The notes below the pieces were generated by a model that made no database searches, was not told where the DNA came from, and saw only the letters and a list, made by a program, of their open reading frames with translations. Shown here in pieces: positions 28,507-43,996 of a stretch of DNA of 64,000 bases. The stretch is from Chthoniobacterales bacterium (GTDB lineage: Bacteria; Verrucomicrobiota; Verrucomicrobiia; Chthoniobacterales; JAATET01). The DNA is taken from positions 62,001 to 126,000 of the forward strand of contig DATCRI010000007.1 of NCBI GenBank assembly GCA_036569045.1, written 5' to 3'. Made by a program: the position numbers and the translations under genes. Numbering within the stretch: position 1 is the first letter of the stretch; each line of letters begins with the position of its first letter.

Positions 28507-28553
28507 AGATGGGTTGGCTGGGACTCGAACCCAGAACCAATGCCTTAAAAGGG
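28507..28553 (-). repeat. Left attachment site (orphan 3' half of tRNA-Lys)
   Basis: This is identical over 47 bp to 43950-43996. It carries the T-arm, variable region, anticodon loop and part of the anticodon stem of tRNA-Lys on the minus strand, then diverges at 28554, so no tRNA can form here. It marks one end of the integrated element. Confidence 0.9.
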
Positions 28554-28581
28554 AGTTGAATATCAGAGTAGTCTTTACCTC

Positions 28582-28607
28582 GCTGCCATTTTGCTGCCAT
28601 GCTGCCA
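28582..28607. repeat. Integrase arm-type repeats, left end
   Basis: Three direct copies of GCTGCCA (28582, 28593, 28601) lie between the left att core and the integrase start. Two matching copies with the same 11-bp spacing lie at the right end (43815, 43826). Short direct repeats flanking the core on both sides of the excised circle are the usual arm sites of tyrosine integrases. Their overlap with the integrase promoter suggests self-regulation. Confidence 0.6.
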
Positions 28608-28623
28608 AAAATTAACCCCATCT

Positions 28624-29817
28624 ATGGCATCAAAGCAATCTTGGCCGAAAATCCGAAAAGTCATCAATCATGGTCGCGTCATGTTTCTGGTGGATACCCG
28701 AAAGAACGGGGCAGGTGAACGACGGTTTTTTCCCACCAAAGGTGAGGCGGAAACGTGGGCGCAAGTCCAGCGCGTCCGACGAGACAATGAAGGGCATGCT
28801 GCATTCGACGATGCCGAGCTTGCGAGATTCGGCCTGACCATCGCCGACGCCATTCGATTCACTCTCGATCATTACCGCAAGCAGGCTGCCAGCGTTTCGA
28901 TTGCCGACGCCATTGCAGGGCTCGTCGCCTCAAAACGCGGGAACGGCCGAGATGAAACCTACTGCCGAACCCTAGCCGCCCGATGCGGAAAACTTCTCCC
29001 TACGTTCGAAGGCCGGAACCTCGCCACGATTACAACAGCGGAACTCGACGCTCTTCTTGTGACGATTACGAACCCAGGAACCCGCAACACACATCGTCGG
29101 GACCTCTGCACCCTTTGGAGCTTTGCCGAAAAGCACGGATGGGCAGTCGCATCCATCGCCAAGAAAACAACCATCGCCAAGACGGTGGATGAAACTCCCG
29201 GCATCCTGACGCCCGCCGAAATCTCGAACTTACTTGCCCTTGCTACCAAGCACGAGGCCAGCACTGTTCCAGCTTTGGCCCTCGCCGCATTCTGCCCCCT
29301 GCGACAGTCCGAACTCGAGAAGCTGGACTGGCAAGCCATTGACCTCGCCGAGCGAATCGTGAGCGTGGACGCCCGGATTGCGAAAACCTCATCCAGGCGC
29401 ACCGTCACCATCCCGGAGAATGCCGTCGAATGGCTACTCCCTCACTCGAAGGAAGCCGGGAAACTCATGCCACCTGGCCACCGCAACGCTTTCGATCGCG
29501 TGCGCGTCCGTGCTGGATTCAAGCCATCGTTTTTCGGGCGCACCGACTCCGAGCTGCAGAGGTTGATTGCCGCCGCGAAGAAGCACAAGACGAAGCTCAC
29601 GGACTGGCCTGACAACGCACTGCGTCATTCGGCTATCAGCTACCGCCTGGCACAGTCCCGCGACATTGCCGCCGTGGCTCTAGAAGCCGGGAACTCGCCA
29701 GCCATCATCCGCCAACACTATCTCGAACTCGTGAAGCCATCCGCCGCCAAGGCTTACTTCGCAATCGTGCCGGCCACACCAGCGAACGTCGTTGCCCTGC
29801 CCTGCAAGGCTGCGTAG
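28624..29817 (+). CDS. int: Tyrosine-type site-specific integrase
   Basis: The 397-aa recombinase has a basic N-terminal arm-binding region (MASKQSWPKIRKVINHGRV), a SAM-like core-binding domain (about 85-180) and a catalytic domain (about 195-385). Catalytic Arg lies in CPLRQSELEKLDW (about 226), the second box is DNALRHSAISYRLA with Arg, the third is GNSPAI, and the nucleophilic Tyr is in RQHYLELV (about 365). Asn replaces His in boxes II and III, as is common in integrases of this phylum. An ATG at 28591 is in frame, but the one at 28624 leaves the arm sites free. It mediates integration at tRNA-Lys. Confidence 0.92.
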   Translation: MASKQSWPKIRKVINHGRVMFLVDTRKNGAGERRFFPTKGEAETWAQVQRVRRDNEGHAAFDDAELARFGLTIADAIRFTLDHYRKQAASVSIADAIAGLVASKRGNGRDETYCRTLAARCGKLLPTFEGRNLATITTAELDALLVTITNPGTRNTHRRDLCTLWSFAEKHGWAVASIAKKTTIAKTVDETPGILTPAEISNLLALATKHEASTVPALALAAFCPLRQSELEKLDWQAIDLAERIVSVDARIAKTSSRRTVTIPENAVEWLLPHSKEAGKLMPPGHRNAFDRVRVRAGFKPSFFGRTDSELQRLIAAAKKHKTKLTDWPDNALRHSAISYRLAQSRDIAAVALEAGNSPAIIRQHYLELVKPSAAKAYFAIVPATPANVVALPCKAA

Positions 29818-29835
29818 CCTTCTAATTCCACGCCG

Positions 29836-32800
29836 CTAAAATGGCGATGTCGGCCCGGTGGAAGGCGGCGTGTCCCACTTCGGCACCTGCAGGGATGGAT
29901 CCCGCACGTCGCCTCGATTTGCCTGATTGAGCGCGTCGAGGATCTTCTGCAGGAGGTTCGTCACCCCCTCGCCACCGCCGGAATTGCCGCCGATCCCCGT
30001 CATGGAATCCACGCGGATCGAGTCGATCGCATTCCGGGCCTCTGCCTCGTTGGCACGCTTCACCTGGCCGCCGTTCCAGTCATCCGCAGTGACTGCCCTA
30101 CCGCCGGAGGAAGCCTGGCTACGATTACGCAGCCGTTCTCTCCGCGTTTCGCGACCTTCCGCTCGCGCCAGCTTCACCGCCTCTTCATTGGTGAGCCCTT
30201 GCCGCTTGAGCTCGAGAATACGCTGCTCGATCTGGAGTTGCTCCCGTAGCCGCGCGGCGCCTTCTTTGTTGCCTCGATTCTCCATTCCTGCTGCCCGCAA
30301 CTCGCCTTCCGCCTGGTGCTTTGTTCGCAACCCATCACGTCGCTGATTCGCGAGATCCGCATCGATGCCCGTGATCTCCGCACGGCGACCGCCAATCTCC
30401 GCGTCTATCCCGGCGACAGTTTTGCCCTCCGCGCCCGCAGCTTTGATCTTGTTCCGGTCACCGCTCTCGAGCGCCTTTCGCTGGTTTTGAAGGTCGGAAA
30501 CCTCGGTATTGATGGATTCCTTTCGCAGCGCCGCCTCCTTTACCGCGCGGTCGTAACCTTCCTCCTTCAATCCGGCAATCTGCCTTTCAATGTCGTAACG
30601 TCTCAACGTCAGCGCCGCCTCGCGCTCGGCGCTGGCGGATTCCGAGACGAGACTCGAAGCATTCGCCTTCTCGGTGACAATCTCATTACGCTTCGCTGAC
30701 ACCTTGTTCGCAAGTCCCTCCACCGTCTCGCCCTCCGCCCCCGTTGCAGCTTGCGCGGCTAGTGCCGTTTTTAAGGCCTCCCGCTTCTTGGCGTCGCCGG
30801 GATTCGCTGCCGCCTCCACCTGCGCCCGCCGCGTCTCCTCGACCGCACTCTTCTGCCTCTCAAGCGCCTCCAGCTCGCTGGAAAGCTGCGTTGCTCGAAT
30901 CTGGCTTTCCTCCCTCGCCCGCGCAATACCCTCCGATCGCAGCGCCGCGGTCTTTTGTTCCGCGTCGAGCCGTTTTGCCGCCGCGGCCTCATCGGCTTTC
31001 CGCGTGCTCTCCCGGTTCTCCGCCGTATCGAGCCCATCGAGCACATCCGTTCTCGCCACCGCGTTTTCCCTCATTTCCTGCGTCACCTGCGCCGGCGTCT
31101 TACCCAGAGCGCCTTCACGCGCCACATCGCGCTGCTTGATTACGAGATCGCGAGTGTCCGCAGGATTGTCCACGGCCGCCAATGCCTTCGCCTGCCGCCG
31201 CAGCCGCTCCTGCTCCTGGTCGAGTAATTCGAGTCGGATCTTCGCCTCTTCTCTCGCTCGCTCCACACCCTGCCCGCGCAAACCAGCGATCTTCTGCGCA
31301 GCCGCGACTTCCTGATCTGCGGCCCCCGACTCGGCCTTACCCTGGAGGTTTTCCAGCACGCCCGCGTCCCGTGCCCGCACGGCAGCCGCACTCTCCGTCG
31401 CCGCTCGCGACGGATCGTTCTCCACGCGCACTTGCTCGAGCCGCATCTGCGCCGCATTCTTCTCCTCCTCCGTAGCGCCGGAACCCGGCGCGGTCACTGC
31501 ACTCAACGCCGCCTGCGCCTGGTATTCCTCGCTCTTCCCCTGGTAGCCGGCAATGGCCGCATGGGCAGCGTCTCGTTGCGCGGCCGCGTTATCCACCACC
31601 GACTGCGCTGCCGCCACATCCGCCTGCTTTTGCCGCATAATGGCGGGATCCGGGTCCGCCCATTTCTGATACGCTGCAAGGTCCTTTTTCTTTGCTTCGA
31701 GATCGGGCGTTGCCGTCGCCAGCGTGTCGTTCGCCTGCGTCAACGCAGCCTCGCGCGGCTGCACTGCCAGTCGATCTTCCGCGAGCAACTGCGTCTGGGA
31801 ATCCGCCTTCGCCGAGGCAGCTTGCTTTTCCGCCGCCCGCTCCTCAAGAGCCTTCTGCTTCGCATCGCCCTTGAGATTGCCGATCACGGATTCCTGAACC
31901 TCGTTGCGAATCTGCCGCTCGAGTTCCAACCGCTCCTTCGCGAGGGACAGCCGTTTCTCGTCGAGAGCGACCGCCGCGCCCGCGCCAGATTCGACAGCCG
32001 CCTCGAGATTGGCGTTCGCGGTTTGAAGCTCGCCTTCCCGATCTTTCACCGCCTTGCCGGTATCCTTGAAGGGATTCTGGTTTTCCCGATCCTCCTTTTT
32101 GGCGGCATCCAGATTCGCCTGCGCATCCGCAACCCCTTTGTAGGCCGCGGCAAGCACTGCCGCGCGATCGGCCAACGTCCTCACATGCTCAATCTGGTCC
32201 TGGAGCTTTGCGTTTGACTGCTCCGTCGACCGCCGCATCTCGGACTGGCCTTTCGAATAATCCTGAGCCGACATCCACGCATCTCCACACGCCGCCGCCA
32301 CCGCCGTAAGTAACCCGATCGCCCATCCCACCGGCCCCATCGCCAGTTTTGTCGCGTTACCTAGCCAAAGAACGGAGCGCGCCAGAATCCCCATCGCCCC
32401 TGCCGCTGCCGAACTCGCCGTCGCCCAGCCCGTAATGGCCACAGCGAACTGGATCACGCCCTGGACAGCCATAAGCGCACTAAACACCGCCAGGGCGGTA
32501 ATAGCCACGCCGAGCGCACTCGTCACGGCGACCACGCCGGATCGCAGGCCGGGAATGGTCGACGCAAAAACGGAAACCGCCCCGGTCACCCGCTCCCACG
32601 CAGCATAAAAAAGCCCCACAACCTGGCTGGCCGACTTGAGAACCGGAGCAAGAGCCTCAGCCGACTTGATCTGTGATTCCAACCCGATCTTCGCCCCACC
32701 CTCAAATGCCTCTCCAACTTCTTGGTTGCTGCGTTCTTGCGTGCTCGACAGCTTCGCCTGGAGGCCCGCGATTTCATTCGCTGCCGTTTTCATCGCGCCA

Positions 32801-33474
32801 CTACTCCGCGCAAGATCGCCCTCGACCAATCGCCACATCGTCGAAAAATCGGCTCCACTCGCAGAAAGGATCGCGATCTGGCCGGCAGTGCTTTGCGACA
32901 CCGCCCCCATGTTCGCAAGCGCCTGGGCGGCATTGTCTGCCGGCCGACCATTTTGAAGGTTATCGTAGAGCGTGCCGACCGCCGCCGCCATGTCGCTAAA
33001 TGGCGCGCCGTTTCTCGCCGCTGCATCTCCCACCAGGTCCATACCCCGGCGCGTCGCCAACAGCCCTCCCGTGAGCACCTGCAAATTCCGCGCCCCCACG
33101 GCCGCATCGTCGAACGAAAACGGCGAGCGCTTTGCCCACTCTGCCGTCTCGCGCAGACGGCGGTTAGCGGCATCCAGCCCACCAAGCAACCCTTTGAGCT
33201 GATCCCGATAGAGCTGCATCTTCGCCAGGGATTCGAGCGACTTTCTCACCAACTCGCTCTGCCGAACAACATTGCCAAGGTTCAAGGCAAACCCCAACGC
33301 CGCTCCGCTCGCGAGAGCCAGCGGCCCCGCAAAGTCGTTCAGAATCTTGAGAAGAGTGCCACCCTTTGCCCTCGCCGCATCAAGCGCGTCACCCATTCGC
33401 GACAAACCCTCTGCCCCCTCCTTCACACTTTGCACTCCCGGACCATACTCCGGAAAGTCACCTCGATCGCTCAT
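29836..33474 (-). CDS. Phage tail tape-measure protein
   Basis: The 1212-aa protein has the tape-measure plan. The N-terminal domain (about 75-230) has AKRSPFSFDDAAVGARNLQVL and GTLYDNLQNGRPADNAAQAL. A strongly hydrophobic region with several membrane-like helices follows (about 285-400). After that come some 700 residues of Ala/Glu/Lys/Gln/Arg-rich coiled coil (about 420-1150; repeated AREE, AALR, GLRGQG-like units), and a short disordered tail. In phages this protein sets tail length and enters the cell envelope during DNA delivery. At roughly 0.15 nm per residue (a general rule) it would fit a tail near 180 nm. It is the last gene of the operon. No tail tube, assembly chaperone or tip gene is adjacent, which is very unusual. 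Confidence 0.82.
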   Translation of the reverse strand: MSDRGDFPEYGPGVQSVKEGAEGLSRMGDALDAARAKGGTLLKILNDFAGPLALASGAALGFALNLGNVVRQSELVRKSLESLAKMQLYRDQLKGLLGGLDAANRRLRETAEWAKRSPFSFDDAAVGARNLQVLTGGLLATRRGMDLVGDAAARNGAPFSDMAAAVGTLYDNLQNGRPADNAAQALANMGAVSQSTAGQIAILSASGADFSTMWRLVEGDLARSSGAMKTAANEIAGLQAKLSSTQERSNQEVGEAFEGGAKIGLESQIKSAEALAPVLKSASQVVGLFYAAWERVTGAVSVFASTIPGLRSGVVAVTSALGVAITALAVFSALMAVQGVIQFAVAITGWATASSAAAGAMGILARSVLWLGNATKLAMGPVGWAIGLLTAVAAACGDAWMSAQDYSKGQSEMRRSTEQSNAKLQDQIEHVRTLADRAAVLAAAYKGVADAQANLDAAKKEDRENQNPFKDTGKAVKDREGELQTANANLEAAVESGAGAAVALDEKRLSLAKERLELERQIRNEVQESVIGNLKGDAKQKALEERAAEKQAASAKADSQTQLLAEDRLAVQPREAALTQANDTLATATPDLEAKKKDLAAYQKWADPDPAIMRQKQADVAAAQSVVDNAAAQRDAAHAAIAGYQGKSEEYQAQAALSAVTAPGSGATEEEKNAAQMRLEQVRVENDPSRAATESAAAVRARDAGVLENLQGKAESGAADQEVAAAQKIAGLRGQGVERAREEAKIRLELLDQEQERLRRQAKALAAVDNPADTRDLVIKQRDVAREGALGKTPAQVTQEMRENAVARTDVLDGLDTAENRESTRKADEAAAAKRLDAEQKTAALRSEGIARAREESQIRATQLSSELEALERQKSAVEETRRAQVEAAANPGDAKKREALKTALAAQAATGAEGETVEGLANKVSAKRNEIVTEKANASSLVSESASAEREAALTLRRYDIERQIAGLKEEGYDRAVKEAALRKESINTEVSDLQNQRKALESGDRNKIKAAGAEGKTVAGIDAEIGGRRAEITGIDADLANQRRDGLRTKHQAEGELRAAGMENRGNKEGAARLREQLQIEQRILELKRQGLTNEEAVKLARAEGRETRRERLRNRSQASSGGRAVTADDWNGGQVKRANEAEARNAIDSIRVDSMTGIGGNSGGGEGVTNLLQKILDALNQANRGDVRDPSLQVPKWDTPPSTGPTSPF

Positions 33475-33477: not shown

Positions 33478-34824
33478 TCAGGGTCTTCCCGTCGCGATCC
33501 TGCGGAGCCACCCCTTCCCACCAGGCGACATTCCACGAAGCGCGCCAACTCCGGCTCCAATCCCCGCGCCAACGGCAGCTCCGCGCGCGCCACCTCCAAG
33601 CAACCCGGTTTCCGGATCGCCATCGACGACAGCGCTCCCCGCTCCAATGGCGGCTCCCACGCCGACACCTTTCAGCGCGCCCCGAGCGGCACCATTCAGC
33701 GTCGTGCCAGGCGTCCGCAGATTGATCGCTCCGCTCCGAATCATCTTCAGAACATGATCGAAGACACTTCCGGCCACTCCGAAGAACACGTAGTGCGAGC
33801 TTTGAGCCCTCTTCTCATCGAAGGAAAATCCAGCCGCCCGCGCATCGGCGAGAAATAGTTTCCGCTCGTGATGACCCTCTCTCGCCAGCGCATTCAGAAA
33901 GACTGAGCGAGCGGTCTCGGAGAATTTCGATGTCGCTGTTCGCCGCATGATTTGTCTGACGACCTCGCTCAAGCGTGCAGCGGCAATTCCAGTCGCGGCC
34001 GCCCCGGCTACAAACGGCACCGCTCCCTCCACCTGCTTCGCCTCACGACTGCGATCGCCATACATATCTTTTGTGCCTTCGGTAGCCCTACGCACCGCAA
34101 GCACGCTGCCCGCCCCCAGGATTCCCCCGAGGATAGCTCGACGACCAGGCGCAAGACCGCGCGCGGGCGCCAGCACACCCGCTGCCGCACCCAGCGCACC
34201 CGACCGGAGGAGATTTGCATCCCGTCGAGATTCGTCGTCGTCGCGAATCTTTTTGCGATAGCGATCCGCCGCGAGCTTTCCGGTGAGAGGTTGCCCGTCG
34301 AATTCGATCCCGACCAGGCGCGCACCGAGAACGTGAATCACGGATTTTTCCGTCGGACCCGCCGAGGAAAATTCGCGCGCACTCCCGCTTCGCGCCGCCC
34401 TGCGAAGCTCGATGTTTGCTTCCCCTCGGCGTCGCTTCGTTTCTTCGTCGTTCGCGCGATTACCTCGCTTGCGCATGTCGTCGCGGTTCTGACAAAGCAA
34501 GAAATCGGCCGCCTGGACAAAACGGCGCTCCATGTCGGGGCTATCATCGAGATCCATTTCCTCCGCGAGCGAAACGAGAGCAGCCGACAGCAGCGCCCGC
34601 TTGAGTTCGTTGAGGGAGCTGGTCTTGAAAGGAAATTCCGCAGCGTCGCCAGAGCCCCTCGGACCTCCGAAAGGGCATAGAATGCCCGCCTGGATCAAGG
34701 CCATAAGCGCCTCGTGGTCGATTCCAAGCCGCATCATCAAGCGGTCGACGGTTTGTTTTTCGATGCCGTCATACACACGATTCATCGGCGCGTGACGGTC
34801 CAGCAATTCAGCGATCGTTTTCAT
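33478..34824 (-). CDS. Unknown phage-like protein with glycine-zipper C-terminus
   Basis: The 448-aa protein has a soluble charged N-terminal half (about 1-205). A hydrophobic Gly/Ala segment follows (about 210-240; SGALGAAAGVLAPARGL), then a mixed middle, and a long C-terminal glycine zipper (about 385-435; GALKGVGVGAAIGAGSAV, GGARGAAVGAGIGAGVGAL). GxxxG runs of this sort pack membrane helices and occur in phage DNA-injection and pore proteins. Stop and start codons are 3 nt from the tape-measure gene and 6 nt from the upstream gene, so it belongs to the operon. The family is not recognised. Confidence 0.6.
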   Translation of the reverse strand: MKTIAELLDRHAPMNRVYDGIEKQTVDRLMMRLGIDHEALMALIQAGILCPFGGPRGSGDAAEFPFKTSSLNELKRALLSAALVSLAEEMDLDDSPDMERRFVQAADFLLCQNRDDMRKRGNRANDEETKRRRGEANIELRRAARSGSAREFSSAGPTEKSVIHVLGARLVGIEFDGQPLTGKLAADRYRKKIRDDDESRRDANLLRSGALGAAAGVLAPARGLAPGRRAILGGILGAGSVLAVRRATEGTKDMYGDRSREAKQVEGAVPFVAGAAATGIAAARLSEVVRQIMRRTATSKFSETARSVFLNALAREGHHERKLFLADARAAGFSFDEKRAQSSHYVFFGVAGSVFDHVLKMIRSGAINLRTPGTTLNGAARGALKGVGVGAAIGAGSAVVDGDPETGLLGGGARGAAVGAGIGAGVGALRGMSPGGKGWLRRIATGRP

Positions 34825-34830: not shown

Positions 34831-35760
34831 TTAAAAATTGAGTTCGTGGATGGCGCGCCGCGCGAAGCTCAAGCGCGCGGCACTCTTCGCTGGCACCGAC
34901 AACAGCCGCGCGCTCTGTGCCGCGATTTTCGCGGGCGCGAACGTCGGGGGCCGGAGACCGCCAGCCCCCGACGCCGCCAGGCCCGCAGCGTCCCGACCGA
35001 CGCCACGAAGGAGACCCAACCGTGCGAGCAAATTCCTCCGTCTCGCGACTTTCTCGGCCTGGACGTTGCCGTAGGCAGCCGCCATCGTCCCGGGCGTAAG
35101 CGCCGCCTGCGCCGCCGGAGTAAACTGCCCCATGCCGTCACGCGGCCGCGCGTCGGCGAATTCCCGCCGCTGAGACTGACGATTTTTCCGGTCGCGTTTG
35201 ATCGCATTGATCGTGTCCACTTGCTGGCCCTCGTCCGCTGCATGCGCACCGCCAACAACCGCGCCGATTCCTGCTCCTGTCGCGATGGCAGTCGGCGTGG
35301 ACGCCGTTTTCAAAAAAGCCGCGGGTCGCCACTTGCGTGCGGCAGAATCGAGACTGCCCAGCCCCGGAAGCTTCGCCCCCTGCCGCAATGCAATGGCGGC
35401 CGCACCGCCTAGTCCCGCCCCCACGACGGCACCTCCCACCGCCGCGCGCTTTGTAGTCGCCCCACCTTCGTCCTCTCCAGGCCGACCGAGAATCTGCCCA
35501 CCAACGAAAGTCCCGCCCCCACCGATCGCCGCACCAGCCCCCGCAGCCGCGCCGACCGACTTCAGAACGCTTCTGACATTGGATCCGCGTCGGAATCCTG
35601 GGATCAACCCAAGCGCAGCGCCACTCAGGCCGGCGGAGATGCCAGCCTGCAACCAAGCCGGAGTTTTGCGTTGTGGCTCATCGGACTCCGAAAATGCAAA
35701 AAGAGGCAACCGAGATAGCAGCACCCGGTGGCGCGGGATTCGAGAAGCAGAGGCAGGCAT
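34831..35760 (-). CDS. Unknown phage-like glycine-zipper membrane protein
   Basis: The 309-aa protein has at least four Gly/Ala-rich, GxxxG-containing hydrophobic stretches (about 40-60, 68-90, 108-128, 155-175; for example GISAGLSGAALGLIPGF and KRAAVGGAVVGAGLGGAAAI). These alternate with basic segments, and the C-terminal region is Arg/Ala-rich. Such composition suggests an envelope-inserting protein, perhaps carried in a virion with the tape measure. Similar zippers in the neighbouring 448-aa protein hint that the two work together. No family is recognised. Confidence 0.6.
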   Translation of the reverse strand: MPASASRIPRHRVLLSRLPLFAFSESDEPQRKTPAWLQAGISAGLSGAALGLIPGFRRGSNVRSVLKSVGAAAGAGAAIGGGGTFVGGQILGRPGEDEGGATTKRAAVGGAVVGAGLGGAAAIALRQGAKLPGLGSLDSAARKWRPAAFLKTASTPTAIATGAGIGAVVGGAHAADEGQQVDTINAIKRDRKNRQSQRREFADARPRDGMGQFTPAAQAALTPGTMAAAYGNVQAEKVARRRNLLARLGLLRGVGRDAAGLAASGAGGLRPPTFAPAKIAAQSARLLSVPAKSAARLSFARRAIHELNF

Positions 35761-35775: not shown

Positions 35776-36594
35776 TCAACTCAACCGCGCCCCGTCGCGC
35801 CCCTCGTTAATTCCGCGCAGCCGCCATCCGTTTTTCAATTGAGCTTGCCGAAACCCCTCTATCGCCGAATCGGACTTCGTTCGAAAATATCCCGCACACT
35901 CCCCCAGACGCTCGCGCCATCCACGCACAGCCTTGGAGAGTGCCTGCCGTGAAACTCCTAACCGCCGCGCCGCTATGGAAACAATCTCCCCATTCCCGCG
36001 AAGCCAACCTCCAGTCGCGATGTCGAGCGCCACAATTTTTGTTTGTGAACACCCGCCCGGAATGAGCTCGTCGAGGAGACGATGAAGCACCGCGACCTTT
36101 CGCCGGTCGGCAAAATCAAGATGCTCCCGCCAAAATTTCTCGAGTCGATCAAACCGTTCTGGAGGCACCCTGACCGCGGATTCTGCCCACTTTCGGTCGA
36201 AACCGTCAGCGACGCCCCACTTGCTCGCAACTGCCAGAGCGAGGAGTTTAGCATACCCTTCTCCCGGCTCGCTCTCAGCCAATTCGACAATAGCGAATCG
36301 AAGCCCGTCCGCCCGCTCGTCTTCAGCGTCGCGACTCCCTTCACCAAGTGTTTCAAAAAACTTCTCTTGAAAATCGTAGCCTTCGGCTCGCGCGATCAAG
36401 GAACTCACGACCTCATCGACATCCCTGTCATCGCCTTCCCTTACGCAGTCGAAGCCAACTTTCAGCCCATCGAAATCTTTGATTCCTTTCGCTCGGAGTC
36501 GCTCCCGCTCCGTGGCCGGCAGCGATTGCAACCACCCGTCAAATTCCGCACGGGCACGATCCCGCCAGCCCGAATCATCTTCGCGGGTAATCAC
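35776..36594 (-). CDS. Unknown protein with C-terminal helix-turn-helix
   Basis: The 272-aa product begins at a GTG (36594). The N-terminal 180 residues are charged and helical with no motif I recognise. Near the C-terminus, VSIAARRLGVSRQALSKAVRGWRERLG (split here as a helix, turn and recognition helix, about residues 212-238) is a clear helix-turn-helix. It could be a small-terminase-like DNA-recognition protein or a regulator; no ATPase partner is present. It lies 3 nt after the upstream gene. Confidence 0.6.
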   Translation of the reverse strand: MITREDDSGWRDRARAEFDGWLQSLPATERERLRAKGIKDFDGLKVGFDCVREGDDRDVDEVVSSLIARAEGYDFQEKFFETLGEGSRDAEDERADGLRFAIVELAESEPGEGYAKLLALAVASKWGVADGFDRKWAESAVRVPPERFDRLEKFWREHLDFADRRKVAVLHRLLDELIPGGCSQTKIVALDIATGGWLRGNGEIVSIAARRLGVSRQALSKAVRGWRERLGECAGYFRTKSDSAIEGFRQAQLKNGWRLRGINEGRDGARLS

Positions 36595-36597: not shown

Positions 36598-37359
36598 CTA
36601 CAGGCTTTCCATGCGCTCACGGATGAGAGCGGCAAATTCCAGCATCGGCCGCATCTCACAAAGCGCAGCTTCGCAACGCTCGCGGGTCCAGCTTCGAAGC
36701 TTCTGTTGACCACGCCAGGTATCGAAATCCGCGACGACGCGCCCGAGCAAAACGGTTCTCCTTCCGACTCCTACAGGGTGCCACCCTCCTTTTCTTTCGC
36801 CGACAGACTTTTTCACCTCACCAGCCTCAATGGACGCGGCTAGTTCCCCGACTGACAGGCCATGCTGCACCACCGCTCGCGCCCATTTAGCCGCATCATC
36901 CGCCGTCTTCGCACGCTCCACGGCCCGCAAATGGGCCGCAGGCAAAGGAACTTCCAACCGCGCGGCAACCATGATCGAAAGTCTGCCGCAGCTTTGAACC
37001 TTGTTGAGTTCAACGACATCGCGCCAGGACAAGGCCCGCCATTGCTCGTTTGTCATACGCCCCTCGAGAAACAACGCCGCAATGCCCGAGGTCGCGACAC
37101 CTGTAGAGATAGTGCCTTTCGGGATTCCGAGTTCGCGAAGCGCGGGAAACGGCTGAAAAGCGTCTCCATCCCGCCGCCGCAGCTCAACGAGGAGCAGCCC
37201 GAGCTTTTTGAACCCGGTGCTCATCGCGCGATCCGCGTCCGCGACACCCGCCGCTACGCCAACGATCTCACCCAGCAAATTCTCGCGCGACAAGCTTTGC
37301 AGCCCCACACGAACCCTTTCCGCCGGCGCGGATTCCTCCCAATTGAGCAGCGCGCGCAT
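36598..37359 (-). CDS. Unknown phage-like protein
   Basis: A 253-aa product from the ATG at 37359; a GTG one codon upstream is also possible. It is mainly helical. The segments PALRELGIPKGTISTGVATSGIA and RALSWRDVVELNKVQSCGRLSI could form a helix-turn-helix-like unit, as could RAKTADDAAKWARAVVQHGLSVGELA further on. I do not recognise the family. Short gaps (8 and 3 nt) tie it to the operon. Confidence 0.55.
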   Translation of the reverse strand: MRALLNWEESAPAERVRVGLQSLSRENLLGEIVGVAAGVADADRAMSTGFKKLGLLLVELRRRDGDAFQPFPALRELGIPKGTISTGVATSGIAALFLEGRMTNEQWRALSWRDVVELNKVQSCGRLSIMVAARLEVPLPAAHLRAVERAKTADDAAKWARAVVQHGLSVGELAASIEAGEVKKSVGERKGGWHPVGVGRRTVLLGRVVADFDTWRGQQKLRSWTRERCEAALCEMRPMLEFAALIRERMESL

Positions 37360-37367
37360 CACTGGAA

Positions 37368-37994
37368 CTATTTGCGTTGCTCAACCTGATTTGCCACTTC
37401 CGCCAGTTCGACGCACAGCGCTTCGAACCGGTCATCACTTGGCAAGTTTTTCGCGGCCTCCAAGCACCGCGCACGACAGGAGTTCACATGCAGCGTTAGC
37501 TTGCGGGCATCGCGCAAGGAGCGCAGGCAAGGCTCAAGAGCCCGCCAAGCCGCCTCCTCTCCACTTCCCGAGGGATAGAAATCTCCGCTACCAAGAAAGT
37601 CCACCCCCGCTTTCACGGCAGCCGGAAGAGCCGCCAAAGCAGCATCCTCCGCGCGAGAAAGATTCGTCTTCGCCGCCGGCTGAATGAGCGCAAAATCGTC
37701 GGCCAATGCCTGCCAAGCCGCAGGGTTTCCACCCAGGCATCGTCGCTGTTCCCCGGCCTTAAAGTCATCACTCGTTTTTCCTCCCACCGCAGCCCGCATC
37801 GCACTGGCTCGCGCGTCCGCCGCCGCGACCGCCTCAAGTCGCTCGATGGTCGATTCTCTCTCAAACAAAGCGCGGGCCTCGACCGCCGCGGCATCCGCTT
37901 GGTCGACAGCCGCAAACATGGAATCGATCTCTAAAAAACGAGCATCGAGGGCGGAATAAAAGGAGTCAATTTTTCGGCGAGTTGTGCTGCTCAT
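37368..37994 (-). CDS. Unknown helical phage-like protein
   Basis: A 208-aa product from the ATG at 37994; upstream in-frame codons overlap the preceding gene. It is Ala/Glu-rich and mostly alpha-helical (FYSALDARFLEIDSMFAAVD, AAAVEARALFERESTIERL), with a likely coiled coil between about residues 10 and 75. There is no recognised domain. It sits 16 nt downstream of the previous gene in the operon. Confidence 0.55.
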   Translation of the reverse strand: MSSTTRRKIDSFYSALDARFLEIDSMFAAVDQADAAAVEARALFERESTIERLEAVAAADARASAMRAAVGGKTSDDFKAGEQRRCLGGNPAAWQALADDFALIQPAAKTNLSRAEDAALAALPAAVKAGVDFLGSGDFYPSGSGEEAAWRALEPCLRSLRDARKLTLHVNSCRARCLEAAKNLPSDDRFEALCVELAEVANQVEQRK

Positions 37995-38010
37995 GCACAC
38001 CGCTTCGGCG

Positions 38011-38526
38011 TCAACTCTGCCGCAAAATTCGATCCATGTAAGAGCGGACCTCCGTGTAAATTCCACAGACCTCCTCAAGAGATGCTCCGTCTCCAAAATC
38101 GATCCGATCAATCACACGATCGAGCTTTCGCACCAACGAGATCCCTTCTCCCTGGAGTCGCCCGCTCGCCTTCAACAAGATTCCTCGGCAGCACGCGTCG
38201 ACGTAATCCCGAAGCGCTTCAACGAGGCTATCGATCTCCTCATCGGACATACACTCCTCACTGGCAGCGCTGCTGCGAAGAGCATCGAGTTCCAAAAATA
38301 GCTTCTCAAGCTTGGAAGTGTCTCCTGCCGCCCCATCCAAGATCTCATTCGCGACCTCGTGAGCGACCCCCCTCAGTTCGCGACAAAGGCATTCCTCCGT
38401 GCTCTCACGCCCCCTCGGCCTCTCGCGACGCGAACAACTCAAGAAGGCCGCCCTCACAAGCAGAAGGCATTCTTGCTCATCCTCTGAAAATCCACGCCCT
38501 TTCTGCGGAAGCACGCTCTCGGCCAT
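38011..38526 (-). CDS. Unknown helical phage-like protein
   Basis: A 171-aa acidic helical product with several Cys residues (CLCRELRGVAHEVANEIL, DYVDACCRGILLKASGRL). The family is not recognised. Its ATG lies one base after the stop of the small gene upstream, so translation is probably coupled. Confidence 0.55.
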   Translation of the reverse strand: MAESVLPQKGRGFSEDEQECLLLVRAAFLSCSRRERPRGRESTEECLCRELRGVAHEVANEILDGAAGDTSKLEKLFLELDALRSSAASEECMSDEEIDSLVEALRDYVDACCRGILLKASGRLQGEGISLVRKLDRVIDRIDFGDGASLEEVCGIYTEVRSYMDRILRQS

Positions 38527-38527
38527 T

Positions 38528-38737
38528 TCAATCGGAGGCTGTCAATTCCGAAAAAAAATTCTGGCCCAATTTTTGGCACACATCCGCTACACGCACATCC
38601 CCATCAAGCACCCGTGCGCCCCATCGATCTACGACCTCTTTGTCCGGACAAAGGGATCGCAGTTCAGATCGAAATTTGAAATTGAATCCCGCCGCGGCGG
38701 CCCCCATAAGGCGTCTAATGAAGGAACAAGCAGCCAT
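38528..38737 (-). CDS. Small protein, possible first gene of the tape-measure operon
   Basis: A 69-aa product: MAACSFIRRLMGAAAAGFNF, then basic and acidic segments ending VCQKLGQNFFSELTASD. The stop is one base from the next ATG, which favours it being real. However, its first 20 nt overlap the start of a plus-strand gene (38718), so one of the two starts may be wrong. No family is recognised. Confidence 0.4.
   Translation of the reverse strand: MAACSFIRRLMGAAAAGFNFKFRSELRSLCPDKEVVDRWGARVLDGDVRVADVCQKLGQNFFSELTASD
38707..38718. promoter_or_regulatory. Near-palindromic site, copy 1
   Basis: TAAGGCGTCTAA is an 11/12 match, in inverted orientation, to TTAGACGCCTAA at 39029-39040. The two sites flank the small gene 38718-38996. 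This copy also covers the start region of the divergent minus-strand operon, so it could be a binding site for an element-encoded regulator. Confidence 0.4.
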
Positions 38738-38996
38738 TAGAATCGGATCATTCCTCGCGGTCGACCTGGACGACAACGAAGTTTCCGGCCCTTTCAAATC
38801 CGCCCGCGCGGCCCGCGCGTGGATTGCTCGAAGCGGGAAGAAAGCTTGGGAGGTCGAGACAGATTTCGAAACTCGAGAGAGCATCGAACGGCGCGGCAAC
38901 TTTGGGCGCTACATGATCCTCCAAGGAATCACGGAAATTCACCAAACTCCCTGGGGCACCGATAGCCACGCAATTCGAGAGATCACTTCCAATTAA
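38718..38996 (+). CDS. Small unknown protein
   Basis: A 92-aa product with a plausible alpha/beta fold (IRIGSFLAVDLDDNEVSGPF, ARAARAWIARSGKKAWEVET). No recognised family. It has its own strand, opposite to the operon, and is bracketed by two inverted copies of a 12-bp near-palindrome. The start overlaps the possible small gene on the other strand by 20 nt. Confidence 0.45.
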   Translation: MKEQAAIRIGSFLAVDLDDNEVSGPFKSARAARAWIARSGKKAWEVETDFETRESIERRGNFGRYMILQGITEIHQTPWGTDSHAIREITSN

Positions 38997-39040: not shown

Positions 39041-39091
39041 TAGGCTCCCACGCGCCTCTTGCGCATTTCATTCGGCTGGCGAGATTCTTGC

Positions 39092-39544
39092 ATGCTGGCA
39101 AAGATTCTTCCCGACCTCGATTTTCTTCGACTCTACAGGGCAGAGGGCCTCTGGTGCTTTGATCGCCACGATCTGGGGTTGGAGCGGGAGCTGTTCGTAG
39201 GAGGAATGACAGAGCTGATCGACGCCGTGATCGCCGAGAAGCCCTTCCCTGTGCCAAACCCCGTGCTTCTCTTCGGGGGAGAATTCAATCCTTCCACCCG
39301 CCTGACTTTGATCTGGAAGGAATCCCGCGCCCAGGAGGACGGTGAATGGAACCGTTACCACTGCCGGGAAATGGACAAGGATGGCTGGCTCGGCCCATGC
39401 CTGCTCCGCTTTTTCCCAGAGGCGCCACAATACCTCCATTTCGAGATCTACGACGCCGAGGATCCTTTTTCCGTGCGTCTCGTCCAGTGGCTTTCGAACA
39501 AAGAAATCGGATCGCTCGCCGCCGCCGCTCTGAATCAAAAATAG
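39092..39544 (+). CDS. Unknown cargo protein (small alpha/beta)
   Basis: A 150-aa product from the ATG at 39092. It has LRLYRAEGLWCFDRHDLGLE, MTELIDAVIAE, LLFGGEFNPSTRLTLIWKES and YLHFEIYDAEDPFSVRLVQW. It looks like a compact alpha/beta protein of the small hypothetical families often carried by mobile elements. I cannot name it with confidence. It stands alone on the plus strand between small minus-strand genes, so it may be accessory (moron-like) cargo. Confidence 0.55.
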   Translation: MLAKILPDLDFLRLYRAEGLWCFDRHDLGLERELFVGGMTELIDAVIAEKPFPVPNPVLLFGGEFNPSTRLTLIWKESRAQEDGEWNRYHCREMDKDGWLGPCLLRFFPEAPQYLHFEIYDAEDPFSVRLVQWLSNKEIGSLAAAALNQK

Positions 39545-39943: not shown

Positions 39944-39957
39944 ACCACCGCGGTGGT
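39944..39957. promoter_or_regulatory. 14-bp perfect palindrome
   Basis: ACCACCGCGGTGGT is fully self-complementary. It lies between the stop of a small minus-strand gene (39962) and the promoter area of the antitoxin-like gene. There is no U-tract on the minus strand, so an operator is more likely than a terminator. Nearby (about 39876-39890) a smaller dyad TACCC-N5-GGGTA is also present. Confidence 0.4.
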
Positions 39958-39961
39958 TAAC

Positions 39962-40159
39962 TTATTCGCGCGCGATCAGGATGATTCCAGGGTCGAAATC
40001 CGGCGAGTGGATTTCAATTGCCTCGAAGAGAGTCGCGCACACAACTTCGCCATTAGCACGGCGAATCTCGATCTGAAAATCGGCATTTGTGAATCGCCGC
40101 CGCAGCTGCTTCAGCACTTTGGCAACTCCTCTGATTCGCATCGGTCTGTTTCGCTTCAT
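39962..40159 (-). CDS. Small basic unknown protein
   Basis: A 65-aa product from the ATG at 40159 (MKRNRPMRIRGVAKVLKQLR at the start). The N-terminal half is basic and helical; the C-terminal half is a probable beta-hairpin (DFQIEIRRANGEVVCATLFE). No recognised family. It lies between the replication region and the accessory genes. Confidence 0.4.
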   Translation of the reverse strand: MKRNRPMRIRGVAKVLKQLRRRFTNADFQIEIRRANGEVVCATLFEAIEIHSPDFDPGIILIARE

Positions 40160-40417
40160 GGAAAAGAATAGGCCAGCGCCCACCGCACCTGCGGTCCCGA
40201 ACTCAAAACGGACGGGCGCTGACCCGCCCAGCGCAAAATGTCAACCGTGACGTTCACCCAGCTCGATCCTGCACGCACATCGGATGCTGCACATCCGAAA
40301 TACAGAGTAGAATGGCGAGCGTGAAAGGTGTTTAGGATGAATGGCGAGTCTACTTCTCCTGTTTTACAGCACAGTAATTCCAAACTTTCCTTTTTTATGA
40401 GCCCATATCTTTCTCAC

Positions 40418-40514
40418 CCTTCACAAAAACTCATAAAATTGTCGTGCAAAACAACTTACAACTGTGAATGACAACTCTTACCAATGACATACTGTGAATG
40501 ATGATCCTTCACAA
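40418..40514. other. Putative iteron replication origin of the element
   Basis: In an AT-rich stretch next to the primase-helicase gene, ACTGTGAATGA occurs twice as a direct repeat 30 bp apart (40461-40471, 40491-40501). CCTTCACAA occurs twice flanking them (40418-40426, 40506-40514). All four share TGTGAA/TTCACA. Satellites and plasmids often place such repeats beside their replication initiator. The rest of 40160-40417 contains no gene I can support. Confidence 0.55.
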
Positions 40515-40523
40515 CGGTGCTCC

Positions 40524-40562
40524 TCAAAAAGAAAATGGGCGCTAGGCCAATGGCCCGCGCCC
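40524..40562 (-). terminator. Intrinsic terminator of the primase-helicase gene
   Basis: GGGCGC-TA-GGCC-AAT-GGCC-C-GCGCCC (40537-40562) is a strong hairpin. On the minus strand it is followed by ATTTTCTTTTTG (40536-40525). It is 27 nt beyond the stop of the primase-helicase gene and isolates that transcript from the origin-like repeats. Confidence 0.8.
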
Positions 40563-40589
40563 TAATCCGATCATCTAAGTCAGAAATTC

Positions 40590-43031
40590 TTACTCACTCG
40601 CTCCTTGCGGCCGCCAATTTCGGAAATGGAATCCAAAATAACTCATCGGTTGTTTCCTGCATCCTTCGAACCAAATACTTGCCTTTTTCTTAAACTCTTT
40701 CAGGTGAGGCATTTTATTTATAAACTCACGTGACAGAGAATCGCTGTCCTGGAAGTGAGGCTTCACACCCTCCCACTCACACCACTCTTTATATTCCGCA
40801 AAGAGCTGCTCCACCGTGAGGTAAACCTTTGCAGAATCAGCACTATCAACCAACTCCACACACGCCTCCCAGAAGGCCTTCGCGCTCGAGCGGTGCATCT
40901 GGATCTCTTTCGCGGCTCGCGCGCTGTCGGCCGTCTGCTCAAAGTGCCCTCGCTCCATGAGCCGGTGCAGACCCTCGAGCGCCCAGCGGAGAATGCCGCT
41001 CATCTCCGCCTCGAACTTCGCGACCAGGCTGTAGTCCTTTTGATCCTCCGGGATCTTGTTCTCGAAGGTCACCTGACACAGTCGACGAAAGAACCCGTCA
41101 CTCGTGTCTGACGTCGATGCCCGCACGTTCGAGGCCATAATAAAGCGCCCTTGCGGCCGGTAACTGTAGCCGGCCTTGTGCTTCACATCCACGCCGATTT
41201 GCTCGCCCGAGGTGATCGCCTTGATGAGATCGATGTGCTTGAACGAGTCGCGATTGAGCTCCGTCGCGAGGTAGAGCCGCTTGCCGACGAGCTGCGCTCG
41301 CTGGAAGGGATTGTCGAGCTCCTGCAGGCGCAGGGCCATCGAGTTATCCTCACCGATCAATTTCGTGAGCACCTCGATCAGCGTCGACTTGCCCGTGCCG
41401 CCATCGCCGTAGAAGAAGAAAAATTTGTGATAATTCAGCTGCGGCGCCAGGCAGTAGCCAAAGATCTCCTGCACCTGCCGCTGAACATCGGCCGCCGGCA
41501 GCATCTGCTCGAGCCAGGCCTTGAACCGCGGGCACTCCGCCTCGCCCTCGTAGGCGTGCGGGATCTGAACGGTCGAGAGGTATTTCGGATTGTGCGGCGT
41601 GAGCGTGAGGTCCCGCATGTGGAGCATCCCGTTCGCGCAGTTGATGAGGTCCGCATCGTGCGAATTGAAACGGTCGACGTGCATCGCCACGCGGTTCGCC
41701 ATGAGGTCCTCGATCGAGTTCACAAGGTAGCTCGTCATTTCCTTCCGCGCGTCGAGGTGCGATCGCAACGCGGCCATGATCCATCGGCGCGGCTCGCGCT
41801 GAACGTCCAATCGGCGCCAGCGCGTTCGCTCCCACTGCCACCACTCCTCGCCGGCGTAGCGCGCGACGAATTCCTCACTCAGCACGCCCGCGAGCTCGTC
41901 CTGGTGGACCTTCAGTCCCCCACGATCACCATACGAGAAGCAATGTGAATACCGGATCTCCTCCGGCGGCCTCGCCGTCTCCGCCCAAGCCTTGAGCGCC
42001 AGATACGCCGCATCGCGCACCTCCTCCGCCTCACAGGAATCCCCGAGGCCGACGACGTCCGGCCGCTCGTCGAGAAAGCCCAGCCAGTCAGTGATGTCGG
42101 CTTTATCCGGGCATTCTGGCCACTTCTCCGCGAGATAAACGGCGCCGAGGCGGCCGCAGGCCTCTCGGAGGGCCTTGCAGACCTTGTTTACGTGGTTCCG
42201 GCCCGCGTCATCGTTATCCCCGAGCACGACCACCCACTTGCCCTTGAGCGTGCGCAGGTAGCTGTCGCGCCACTTGCCGGCGCCCATCGGCACCGTGGTT
42301 GAGAGGAGGCCCAGCTCCTTCAGCGTGTCCGCATCCTTCTCTCCCTCGACGAGGAAGATCGGCTCGCCCTCTCCGGCCGCCTCGATCTCCGGCAGCCGGT
42401 AGAGCACCGGCTCGATGCCATCGAGGAAATACACCCAGCCATCCACCGCCGGCCGCTCGCCTGGCTTCGGCTTTCGACGCTGGCGGAACGTCTTGTCCCG
42501 CTTCTCTCCATCCTCACTCTCCCATTGGAAGCGCACCGTCTGGTGCAACACCTCGCCGTCACTGTCTAGATAGTCGTAGATCGTCGAAATGACGTAGCAC
42601 CGGCCGCCCTGCTCGAAGCGTAGCGTCCTGGCCCACTCCGGCTGAATGCTCGTGTCGCGAGGCTTCTCCGGTTTTTTTTCTTCGGCCACGGTGGCACGAT
42701 TTTTGCGCCTGACTGGCTTACTGCCTGCCTCAGCAGGCGAGCCGCCGCCGCGGGACGACGCCACCCCGGCGAGGGAGTGATAGAGTGTGATCGCTTCGCG
42801 ATTGGAGATGGATCGAGCAAGCTCGATGAGGGTGACTTCGTCACCATGGTGCTCGTCGACTGCGTGGTCCTTGAAAAACCAGCGCCCATCCCGTTCAAAG
42901 ACGCTGAAGGACTCGTTCCGATCCTCACGGAACGGGCTGCGCATCACCTTCTTCGGCACGCCGGGCAACCCCAGCACGCGCCAAAGATCCGGCATTGGCA
43001 GCTTTTGTTTACAACGCTCGAGACTGTCCAT
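40590..43031 (-). CDS. Primase-helicase (TOPRIM plus D5/SF3-type helicase)
   Basis: The 813-aa replication protein starts at ATG 43031, preceded by an in-frame GTG. The N-terminal region resembles the CHC2 primase domain (SPFREDRNESFSVFERDGRW, WFFKDHA) but lacks the zinc Cys residues. A TOPRIM-like domain (about 220-330) has IFLVEGEKDADTL and WVVVLGDNDDAGRNH. A D5-type helicase (about 480-700) has Walker A FYGDGGTGKST (about residue 545) and sensor-like FIMASNVRAS. It resembles the primase-helicases of P4-like satellites and prophages. It would start replication at the repeats lying just downstream. Confidence 0.88.
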   Translation of the reverse strand: MDSLERCKQKLPMPDLWRVLGLPGVPKKVMRSPFREDRNESFSVFERDGRWFFKDHAVDEHHGDEVTLIELARSISNREAITLYHSLAGVASSRGGGSPAEAGSKPVRRKNRATVAEEKKPEKPRDTSIQPEWARTLRFEQGGRCYVISTIYDYLDSDGEVLHQTVRFQWESEDGEKRDKTFRQRRKPKPGERPAVDGWVYFLDGIEPVLYRLPEIEAAGEGEPIFLVEGEKDADTLKELGLLSTTVPMGAGKWRDSYLRTLKGKWVVVLGDNDDAGRNHVNKVCKALREACGRLGAVYLAEKWPECPDKADITDWLGFLDERPDVVGLGDSCEAEEVRDAAYLALKAWAETARPPEEIRYSHCFSYGDRGGLKVHQDELAGVLSEEFVARYAGEEWWQWERTRWRRLDVQREPRRWIMAALRSHLDARKEMTSYLVNSIEDLMANRVAMHVDRFNSHDADLINCANGMLHMRDLTLTPHNPKYLSTVQIPHAYEGEAECPRFKAWLEQMLPAADVQRQVQEIFGYCLAPQLNYHKFFFFYGDGGTGKSTLIEVLTKLIGEDNSMALRLQELDNPFQRAQLVGKRLYLATELNRDSFKHIDLIKAITSGEQIGVDVKHKAGYSYRPQGRFIMASNVRASTSDTSDGFFRRLCQVTFENKIPEDQKDYSLVAKFEAEMSGILRWALEGLHRLMERGHFEQTADSARAAKEIQMHRSSAKAFWEACVELVDSADSAKVYLTVEQLFAEYKEWCEWEGVKPHFQDSDSLSREFINKMPHLKEFKKKASIWFEGCRKQPMSYFGFHFRNWRPQGASE

Positions 43032-43113
43032 CACGCGAGGAGAGGCACGCTGTCAGCTTGGTCAGATCGACGCCGGCGGCCGCCGGCCCGAGAGAAAAGA
43101 AAATGCACGTCCC

Positions 43114-43335
43114 TCAGTGAATTTCTTTCACCTCGTAGATCTCAAGAGCCCGCCGAACGGCATTGGCATCAAAGAAGACCGATCGATATCCGAGTCTGAC
43201 CACAGGAATTTTCCTCTGGCACGCCAGCCGCCGGATACTTCGCGCCGTGATTCGACGCCCCGTCGGATCCAGCTCCATTGCCATTTCAACTGCGCTCAAT
43301 AACCGCCCATCGACAGAATTCGCTTTTGTTTTCAT
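43114..43335 (-). CDS. Excisionase/AlpA-like helix-turn-helix protein
   Basis: A 73-aa product from the ATG at 43335. LDPTGRRITARSIRRLACQRKIPVVRLGYRSVFFDANAVRRAL has the MerR-like winged helix pattern of excisionases and AlpA regulators (long stretch described, recognition part SIRRLACQRKI). It lies 80 nt upstream of the primase-helicase on the same strand and is divergent from the plus-strand HTH gene. It probably promotes excision or activates the replication operon. Confidence 0.65.
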   Translation of the reverse strand: MKTKANSVDGRLLSAVEMAMELDPTGRRITARSIRRLACQRKIPVVRLGYRSVFFDANAVRRALEIYEVKEIH

Positions 43336-43374
43336 CGATTCGACGCGCACTGTCAATTTTGCACATTGCACATC

Positions 43375-43806
43375 ATGGTCGATGCAATCCCCGTTGAAAC
43401 CCTTGCTCACCTCGTCGGCCTAAAAAGGCGGAGGATCGCGCAACTCGCGAGTGAAGGAAAAATTCCAGGCGCAGTTCGCACGAACGGATACCATTTCCGA
43501 TACCCAGACACCGAAGAGCTGCGAACTTGGATCAAGGAGCAGAATTCATCCCGAACGCTAGGCGATGGAAGTCGCTGGGGACCTCAAACGCGCCGAAAAA
43601 AGACCAGCGGCGCCGGCAGCGGCGGTCTCACGTTCCTGCATCAACCCCGCGCCAACTTCGAGCACTGGCTGAAACGAATCGGCGGGAGAAATGCGATCTT
43701 GGCTCTTGAGCAGGAGAAAAAAATCGAACTCCTAGAGGGACTCTCGGAATTTGAAGATCTGTTGCACGCAATTCGAAAGTCGCTGCAGAACCACTCAACA
43801 GACTGA
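43375..43806 (+). CDS. MerR-like HTH DNA-binding protein
   Basis: A 143-aa product from the ATG at 43375. The N-terminal 55 residues (VETLAHLVGLKRRRIAQLAS, KIPGAVRTNGYHFRY, ELRTWIKEQN) form a helix-turn-helix of the excisionase/phage regulator type. The remainder is a basic linker and a helical C-terminus (ALEQEKKIELLEGLSEFEDLL). It is divergent from the excisionase-like gene with 39 bp between them, and two TGCACAT repeats (43360-43373) lie just before its start. This divergent pair is a likely lysogeny-type switch. Confidence 0.65.
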   Translation: MVDAIPVETLAHLVGLKRRRIAQLASEGKIPGAVRTNGYHFRYPDTEELRTWIKEQNSSRTLGDGSRWGPQTRRKKTSGAGSGGLTFLHQPRANFEHWLKRIGGRNAILALEQEKKIELLEGLSEFEDLLHAIRKSLQNHSTD

Positions 43807-43814
43807 CCTTATTC

Positions 43815-43832
43815 GCTGCCAATTCGCTGCCA
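43815..43832. repeat. Integrase arm-type repeats, right end
   Basis: Two direct copies of GCTGCCA (43815, 43826) sit in the repeated unit ATTCGCTGCCA with an 11-bp period. They match the copies beside the integrase at the left end and would flank the att core on the circular form. Confidence 0.6.
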
Positions 43833-43949
43833 ATTTTTTGTGTATTTCGGCGCAAAATAGCATTTTTCCGAGGCGAACAACGTCAAACAGAAACACCCAA
43901 TGAACCGTCTCTACAGCCTGCATTTAAGCTGATCCCAGAGTAATTGGGG

Positions 43950-43996
43950 AGATGGGTTGGCTGGGACTCGAACCCAGAACCAATGCCTTAAAAGGG
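43950..43996 (-). repeat. Right attachment site within tRNA-Lys
   Basis: The 47-bp sequence identical to 28507-28553 extends from 3 bp beyond the tRNA 3' end to the 5' side of the anticodon loop. The tRNA is kept intact at this end, as usual for tRNA-targeting integrases. Confidence 0.9.

What the first reader, a model, noticed from the sequence alone, without database searches (positions are those of the whole stretch)
28507..43996. 15.4-kb tRNA-Lys element that looks like a phage satellite with its own tape-measure gene
Seen: perfect 47-bp repeats, integrase, excisionase-like gene, primase-helicase with origin-like repeats, and a tightly spaced operon of up to eight genes ending in a 1212-aa tape-measure gene. 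No terminase, portal, capsid, tube, baseplate or lysis gene was recognised. Known: P4-like and PICI satellites are 10-18 kb, integrate at tRNAs and hijack helper capsids. Inference: this element may reset the tail length or envelope-penetration machinery of a helper phage, a strategy I do not know from described satellites. A degenerate prophage is the main alternative.
Basis: partly seen in the sequence, partly recalled or inferred. Interest (0 to 1): 0.85.

Follow-up and report, generated by a model that had tools for sequence, protein, structure and literature searches.

The report
Satellite-like element with own tape-measure gene
A 15.4-kb mobile DNA element sitting in a bacterial lysine-tRNA gene carries replication genes and a gene for the ruler protein inside phage tails but none of the genes for the phage shell; it most likely hijacks another phage's particles while supplying its own internal delivery proteins, a strategy first shown in a cholera-bacterium satellite in 2026.

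Summary
A 15.4-kb element lies between perfect 47-bp repeats in tRNA-Lys, with an intact tyrosine integrase, a D5-type primase-helicase and a tight seven-gene operon ending in a 1212-aa gene. No terminase, portal, capsid, tail-tube or tail-chaperone gene was found. Three congeners lack it.

The 1212-aa protein is a genuine tape-measure (TMP) homologue of siphophage type. Its closest relatives lie in full phage genomes or tail modules, mostly directly behind tail-tube and chaperone genes that are absent here.

Two upstream genes (p254, p272) match a gene pair found in intact verrucomicrobial prophages. A third (p309) carries a specific motif of Gly-zipper proteins encoded between portal and major capsid protein in four related phages. 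The operon is therefore phage-derived and mosaic.

Best reading: a satellite-like element that supplies its own TMP and probably one or two Gly-zipper virion proteins to helper-built particles. A reduced prophage cannot be excluded. TMP length is ordinary for the group, so "resetting tail length" is not supported.

Satellite-encoded TMPs are no longer unknown: V. cholerae PLEs build chimeric tails with their own TMP (PMC12987554, 2026). This would be a new variant in another phylum.

The parts
28507..28553 (.). attL: 47-bp copy of the 3' part of tRNA-Lys
28591..29817 (+). tyrosine integrase, 408 aa
   Evidence: PF00589 E 9e-9, phrog_1 E 1e-21; homologue in the tRNA-Arg element of G104 (E 3e-29)
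29836..33474 (-). tape-measure protein, 1212 aa: conserved N-terminal domain (about 47-345), coiled-coil-like middle, C-terminal S-[LM]-x-x-[IV]-G-G-like motif
   Evidence: G425 TMP E 5e-40; annotated TMPs at E 0.02-0.8; homologue L063 hits PHROG TMP families and PF20155; C-terminal motif by eye
33478..34824 (-). p448: Gly-zipper protein, probable virion/ejection protein (inferred)
   Evidence: 16 GxxxG; 'LGARLVGIEFDGQPL' before the Gly-zipper resembles 'LHSRLSAIEFADGEKP' of a phage head-module protein (suggestive only); no database hit; AF2 pLDDT 38
34831..35760 (-). p309: Gly-zipper protein of the kind encoded between portal and MCP in related siphophages
   Evidence: E 3e-5 to 1e-4 to L079 277-aa protein; motif RPRDGMGQF-x(n)-AY shared with four phage proteins, 1 in 106,810 shuffled ORFs
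35776..36594 (-). p272: HTH DNA-binding protein, partner of p254
   Evidence: homologues next to p254 homologues in prophages (E 8e-9 to 4e-5); weak HTH/sigma-r4 hits
36598..37362 (-). p254: ParB-HTH-like protein of verrucomicrobial phages
   Evidence: E 2e-9 to G425; family in 13 of 384 class genomes; a family member hits HTH_ParB E 3e-4
37368..38111 (-). p247: helical protein of unknown function (alternative start about 37997)
   Evidence: open frame with coding signal; AF2 all-helical, pLDDT 59
38011..38526 (-). p171: first operon gene, unknown function
   Evidence: coding signal; no homologue
38718..38996 (+). small accessory gene, about 92 aa (tentative)
   Evidence: reading of the translated frame; function unknown
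39059..39544 (+). 161-aa accessory gene
   Evidence: coding signal; DUF6717 E 0.13 only
40380..40520 (.). AT-rich stretch with two imperfect 24-nt repeats, possible origin
   Evidence: weak
40590..43034 (-). Toprim primase + D5 superfamily-3 helicase, 814 aa
   Evidence: D5_N E 8e-19, DUF5906 E 4e-18, phrog_6088 E 5e-89
43114..43410 (-). p98: HTH protein, Xis/AlpA-like (inferred)
   Evidence: homologue beside the primase of the tRNA-Thr element in G076 (36% over 64 aa, E 1e-4)
43366..43806 (+). 146-aa Cox/excisionase-like regulator
   Evidence: phrog_66 E 0.0014, HTH_17 below cut-off
43950..43996 (.). attR inside the intact tRNA-Lys (43951-44025, minus strand)

Best explanation
It is a phage-derived, satellite-like integrative element. 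The integrase, with the small HTH proteins, inserts and excises it at tRNA-Lys, and the primase-helicase replicates it. Its operon encodes two phage-type DNA-binding regulators (p254, p272), one or two Gly-zipper proteins of a siphophage head module (p309, probably p448) and a full-length tape-measure protein. Portal, capsid, terminase, tail tube, tail chaperone and lysis would come from a helper siphophage of the BvORR034-prophage type. The element would then make chimeric particles: helper shell and tail tube, with the element's own internal proteins that accompany or guide the DNA. Shown: integration site, gene content, homology, phage origin of the genes, absence of recognisable head, tube and chaperone genes. 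Inferred: mobility, helper dependence, incorporation of TMP and Gly-zipper proteins, and a role in DNA entry or in escaping factors that act on the helper's TMP.
For: Perfect att repeats, intact integrase and a congener with the empty site. Full-length open frames with coding signal; the seven operon genes follow within 15 nt of each other or overlap. TMP homology over the conserved domain and a C-terminal motif. The TMP gene is not preceded by the tube and chaperone genes found directly upstream of most close TMP relatives. p309 motif specific to head-module Gly-zipper proteins. p254/p272 pair from phages. Int and primase homologues sit together in a ~6-kb tRNA-Arg element without phage structural genes (L037). 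Precedent: PLE satellites encode a TMP that is incorporated into their virions and needed for transduction (PMC12987554).
Against: No second copy of the whole element was found, so conservation of the arrangement is untested. The operon order (regulators, Gly-zipper, TMP) follows the phage order, as two deletions in a prophage would leave it. No helper with a G425- or G018-type portal, capsid or terminase, and no PF03237 terminase, was found in the host genome. No capsid-size or packaging-redirection gene was recognised. p171, p247 and p448 are unidentified.
Confidence: 0.57

Rival explanations
1. A reduced or cryptic prophage: a BvORR034-like siphophage lost terminase-portal and protease-to-tail-chaperone blocks, leaving regulators, Gly-zipper genes and the tape measure.
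For: All operon homologues identified occur in full phages; relative order regulators, Gly-zipper, TMP matches the phage order; no helper found in the genome; the primase also has a homologue in a prophage (G339, E 6e-29).
Against: All frames are intact and fused into a near-gapless operon; p254 and p272 are in reversed order relative to phages; p171, p247 and p448 have no detected counterpart in those phages; int and primase resemble those of small tRNA elements; no decayed remnants of the missing genes were recognised.
Confidence: 0.27
2. An anti-phage island: the tape measure and Gly-zipper proteins act as decoys that poison assembly of invading phages rather than serving transmission.
For: Tail assembly and TMP are known defence targets (Tab, PMC10884400; Rta, PMC12987554).
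Against: Described inhibitors are not full-length TMPs; here the full-length TMP with its C-terminal motif is kept together with virion-type proteins and a mobility and replication module.
Confidence: 0.1
3. A complete but unrecognised small virus whose capsid and packaging genes are among p171, p247 and p448.
For: Three operon proteins remain unidentified; both structure predictions were of low confidence.
Against: About 2.5 kb of unassigned operon coding cannot easily hold terminase, portal, capsid, tube and tip; p247 is predicted all-helical and p448 is Gly-zipper.
Confidence: 0.04

Closest known systems
PLE satellites of Vibrio cholerae (PLE1, PLE4, PLE11; PMC12987554)
   Same: Satellite-sized integrative element with its own replication functions and its own TMP; lacks a full structural set
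   Different: PLEs also carry a tail assembly chaperone (and some a baseplate hub) and parasitise the contractile phage ICP1; here a siphophage-type TMP, no chaperone, plus Gly-zipper head-module proteins; other phylum; mobilisation not shown
Prophage of Verrucomicrobium sp. BvORR034 (G425; NZ_BATQ01000125.1)
   Same: Homologues of TMP, p254 and p272, and a p309-motif Gly-zipper protein
   Different: Siphophage structural set (portal, protease, major capsid protein, tube, chaperone), tRNA-Ala at its edge, a different (CHC2-like) primase
P4-like satellites
   Same: tRNA integration, D5-type primase-helicase, excisionase-like regulator, 10-18 kb (from general knowledge)
   Different: P4 remodels the P2 capsid with Sid and has no TMP (from general knowledge); no such gene recognised here
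cf-PICIs
   Same: Integrative satellites; a sampling encodes putative tmp genes (PMC12987554, Extended Data Fig. 10)
   Different: They encode capsid, portal and terminase and take tails from the helper; this element has no head shell or packaging gene
Pseudomonas satellite AH14b (PMC4936722)
   Same: 16.8-kb integrated element with primase, no capsid or terminase, one phage tail-assembly gene
   Different: Its tail gene is a lambda-I-like assembly protein, not a TMP

Membership tests
Phage satellite (general) | Integrated between att repeats with its own integrase | tested here: met
Phage satellite (general) | Own replication gene | tested here: met
   primase-helicase
Phage satellite (general) | Lacks genes to build a complete virion | tested here: met
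   no head, terminase or tube hits in Pfam/PHROGs; three operon proteins unidentified
Phage satellite (general) | Mobilised in particles of a helper phage | not testable with these tools
   no helper identified; own genome negative for G425- and G018-type head or terminase genes and PF03237
TMP-carrying satellite (PLE-like strategy) | Encodes its own tape-measure protein | tested here: met
TMP-carrying satellite (PLE-like strategy) | Encodes a tail assembly chaperone beside the TMP | tested here: not met
   the gene before the TMP is p448; the G425 chaperone matches upstream of TMP in G475, G045, L078-L081 and L084
TMP-carrying satellite (PLE-like strategy) | Own TMP is built into the particle and needed for transduction | not testable with these tools
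   needs virion proteomics and deletion
PLE family proper | Sequence relatedness to PLEs | not tested
   PLE sequences were not compared
cf-PICI | Capsid, portal and terminase genes | tested here: not met
P4-like satellites | P4-type primase-helicase with P4 capsid and transcription genes (sid, psu, delta) | tested here: inconclusive
   D5-type primase-helicase found; no sid, psu or delta named by Pfam/PHROGs, but three proteins are unidentified
Intact siphophage | Terminase, portal, capsid, tail tube | tested here: not met
Reduced prophage | Broken or truncated phage genes at deletion joints | tested here: not met
   all frames open and tightly joined; clean deletions at gene borders cannot be excluded

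The most novel reading that the evidence does not exclude
A satellite of Verrucomicrobiota siphophages that leaves the whole shell to its helper and encodes only the virion's internal, DNA-accompanying proteins: the tape measure and Gly-zipper head proteins. It would control DNA delivery rather than capsid size or packaging.
Probability: 0.3. Interest if true: 0.78.

Novelty: new variant of a known kind. Interest (0 to 1): 0.55.

Why it matters
If functional, it would show that satellites supplying their own tape measure are not limited to Vibrio PLEs and some cf-PICIs. It would extend the strategy to another phylum and to a siphophage-type TMP, and suggest that satellites may take over the internal delivery proteins of a virion rather than its shell. 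That would make testable why satellites replace the tape measure: entry specificity, escape from TMP-targeting defences, or selective tail assembly.

Tried and rejected
p448 hits in G193, G090 and G173: G193 and G090 proved to be housekeeping regions, so these are treated as spurious. p247 hit in L072: low-complexity, Arg-rich frame, rejected. Single-protein scans of viral contigs with TMP, primase, p448, p254, p272: no relatives. tblastn of p254, p448, p309 against phages: none. A nine-sequence TMP alignment was too diverse for a pattern scan. PDB search with the TMP profile: only helical and ubiquitin chance matches. AF2 of p247 (pLDDT 59) and p448 (38): too poor for fold searches. The idea of a changed tail length was rejected because the TMP length is ordinary. 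p272/p254 as small terminase was considered from one prophage (G339) where p254 abuts the terminase, but dropped because in G659, G532 and G024 the pair lies 6-21 kb away.

Full report
Setting. The window lies at G000:C7:62001-126000 in a 3.43-Mb, 91-contig genome of the same phylum and class as Verrucomicrobium sp. BvORR034 (G425).

Boundaries. The 47-bp direct repeats are identical and unique in the window. The right one is the 3' part, from the anticodon region on, of tRNA-Lys 43951-44025. In congener G009 the homologue of window 22.8-27.0 kb, about 0.5 kb of other sequence, one tRNA-Lys and the homologue of the right flank follow one another without the element; G020 and G029 have the tRNA and right flank without it. 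The TMP and operon proteins have no match in the other three genomes of the genus, so the insertion is probably recent.

Core genes. A tyrosine integrase and a Toprim/D5 primase-helicase are intact. A ~6-kb element at tRNA-Arg in G104 contains homologues of both and no phage structural genes (L037). An element at tRNA-Thr in G076 has a p98 homologue beside its primase (L035). These resemble a small integrative-element backbone. However, the primase also has a homologue in an ordinary prophage (G339), so the backbone alone does not decide between satellite and prophage.

Operon. Reading on the minus strand: p171, p247 (overlapping), p254, p272, p309, p448, TMP, with gaps of 3-15 nt after p247 (coordinates; starts). 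All seven have coding signal. An eighth minus-strand gene at 38528-38899 is doubtful.

Tape measure. The protein has no direct Pfam or PHROG hit. Homology is nevertheless firm. Searches give E 5e-40 to 1e-20 to TMP genes of verrucomicrobial prophages. The G320 homologue, matched over the same domain, hits several PHROG tape-measure families (best E 3e-13) and PF20155 (E 1e-4, below cut-off). The element's TMP itself matches annotated TMPs of Cellulophaga and Bacteroides phages weakly (E 0.02-0.8). A C-terminal motif seen in G425, G475, G045, L079, L084 and others is also present (by eye; not significant in phmmer), so the gene does not look truncated. In G425, G475, G045, L078-L081 and L084 the TMP follows a conserved chaperone-like gene and, in most, a tube-like gene; in the element it follows p448.

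Phage origin of the other genes. p254 and p272 are homologous to a gene pair in G425, G659, G532, G060, G607, G339 and G024. Most of these loci carry terminase and/or portal genes on the same contig. Family members show weak ParB-HTH and HTH/sigma-region-4 similarity, so they are probably DNA-binding regulators. p309 matches a 277-aa protein of L079 (E 3e-5 to 1e-4) and carries the motif R[DN]xxGQF...AY. This motif occurred in five distinct proteins among 10,681 ORFs: p309 and one Gly-zipper or neighbouring protein upstream of the protease and capsid genes in each of four phages (gene order). It appeared once in 106,810 shuffled ORFs and in 5 of 20,000 shuffles of p309. The pattern was derived from these sequences, so the shuffle numbers are descriptive. 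p448 is also Gly-zipper-rich and has one suggestive local similarity.

What is missing. No terminase, portal, capsid, tube, chaperone or lysis gene was recognised. The host genome gave no match to G425-type portal/MCP/protease, to a G018-type terminase and portal or to PF03237 (the control genomes rang). The assembly is incomplete and these searches cover only some families, so the absence of a helper is not proven.

Interpretation. The gene set is a small mobile-element backbone plus phage regulators plus proteins that, in phages, sit inside the virion (the TMP by family knowledge; the Gly-zipper proteins by inference from gene position). In the PLE satellites a satellite-encoded TMP is built into chimeric tails, and its deletion cuts transduction by 96-99.9% (PMC12987554). 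The same logic is the most economical reading here. TMP length (1212 aa) falls within that of related full phages (916-1771 aa in the closest set), so altered tail length is not implied. Entry specificity or escape from TMP-directed defences (Tab, PMC10884400; Rta, PMC12987554) is more plausible; this is inference.

Main doubt. The order regulators, Gly-zipper, TMP also follows the phage order, and the identified operon genes have full-phage homologues, so a prophage that lost two blocks could look like this. Clean, open and tightly joined frames, the reversed p254/p272 order and three genes without detected phage counterparts argue against simple decay, but without a second copy of the element selection cannot be tested. 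Hence about 0.57 versus 0.27.

Novelty. This element differs in phylum, in its siphophage TMP, in lacking a chaperone and in carrying head-module Gly-zipper proteins: a new variant of a known kind, not a new category.

Noticed in passing
window 27030-28480: A ParA-like gene (27630-28322) and small ORFs lie between the conserved left flank and attL; G009 has a different gene there. Possibly a remnant of an earlier element at the same tRNA.
   Followed up: partly
L062 4556-14857 (G417:C137): Tail genes (including a TMP) and small genes that may include a holin, with a recombinase beyond them, between host genes and with no head gene recognised: possible tailocin or prophage remnant.
   Followed up: no
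L037 about 5700-11900 (G104:C62): Roughly 6-kb tRNA-Arg element with integrase and primase and no phage structural genes; candidate minimal relative of the backbone.
   Followed up: partly
L060 12245-20000 (G475:C4): A phage tail module starts within a few hundred bases of tRNA-Val; the contig ends before any head gene is seen, so a tail-carrying element cannot be excluded.
   Followed up: no
L059 16757-19432 (G425): 891-aa Gly-zipper protein in the head module with an LRAT-like domain (PF04970, E 1.6e-5), resembling a multi-domain injected protein.
   Followed up: no
L058 13284-14585 (G425): The frame ends in a stretch that reads like an RNA polymerase sigma factor, next to the p254 homologue (reading of the sequence, not searched).
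   Followed up: no
window 39059-39544: Plus-strand 161-aa gene in the element with only a weak DUF6717 similarity (E 0.13); candidate cargo.
   Followed up: no
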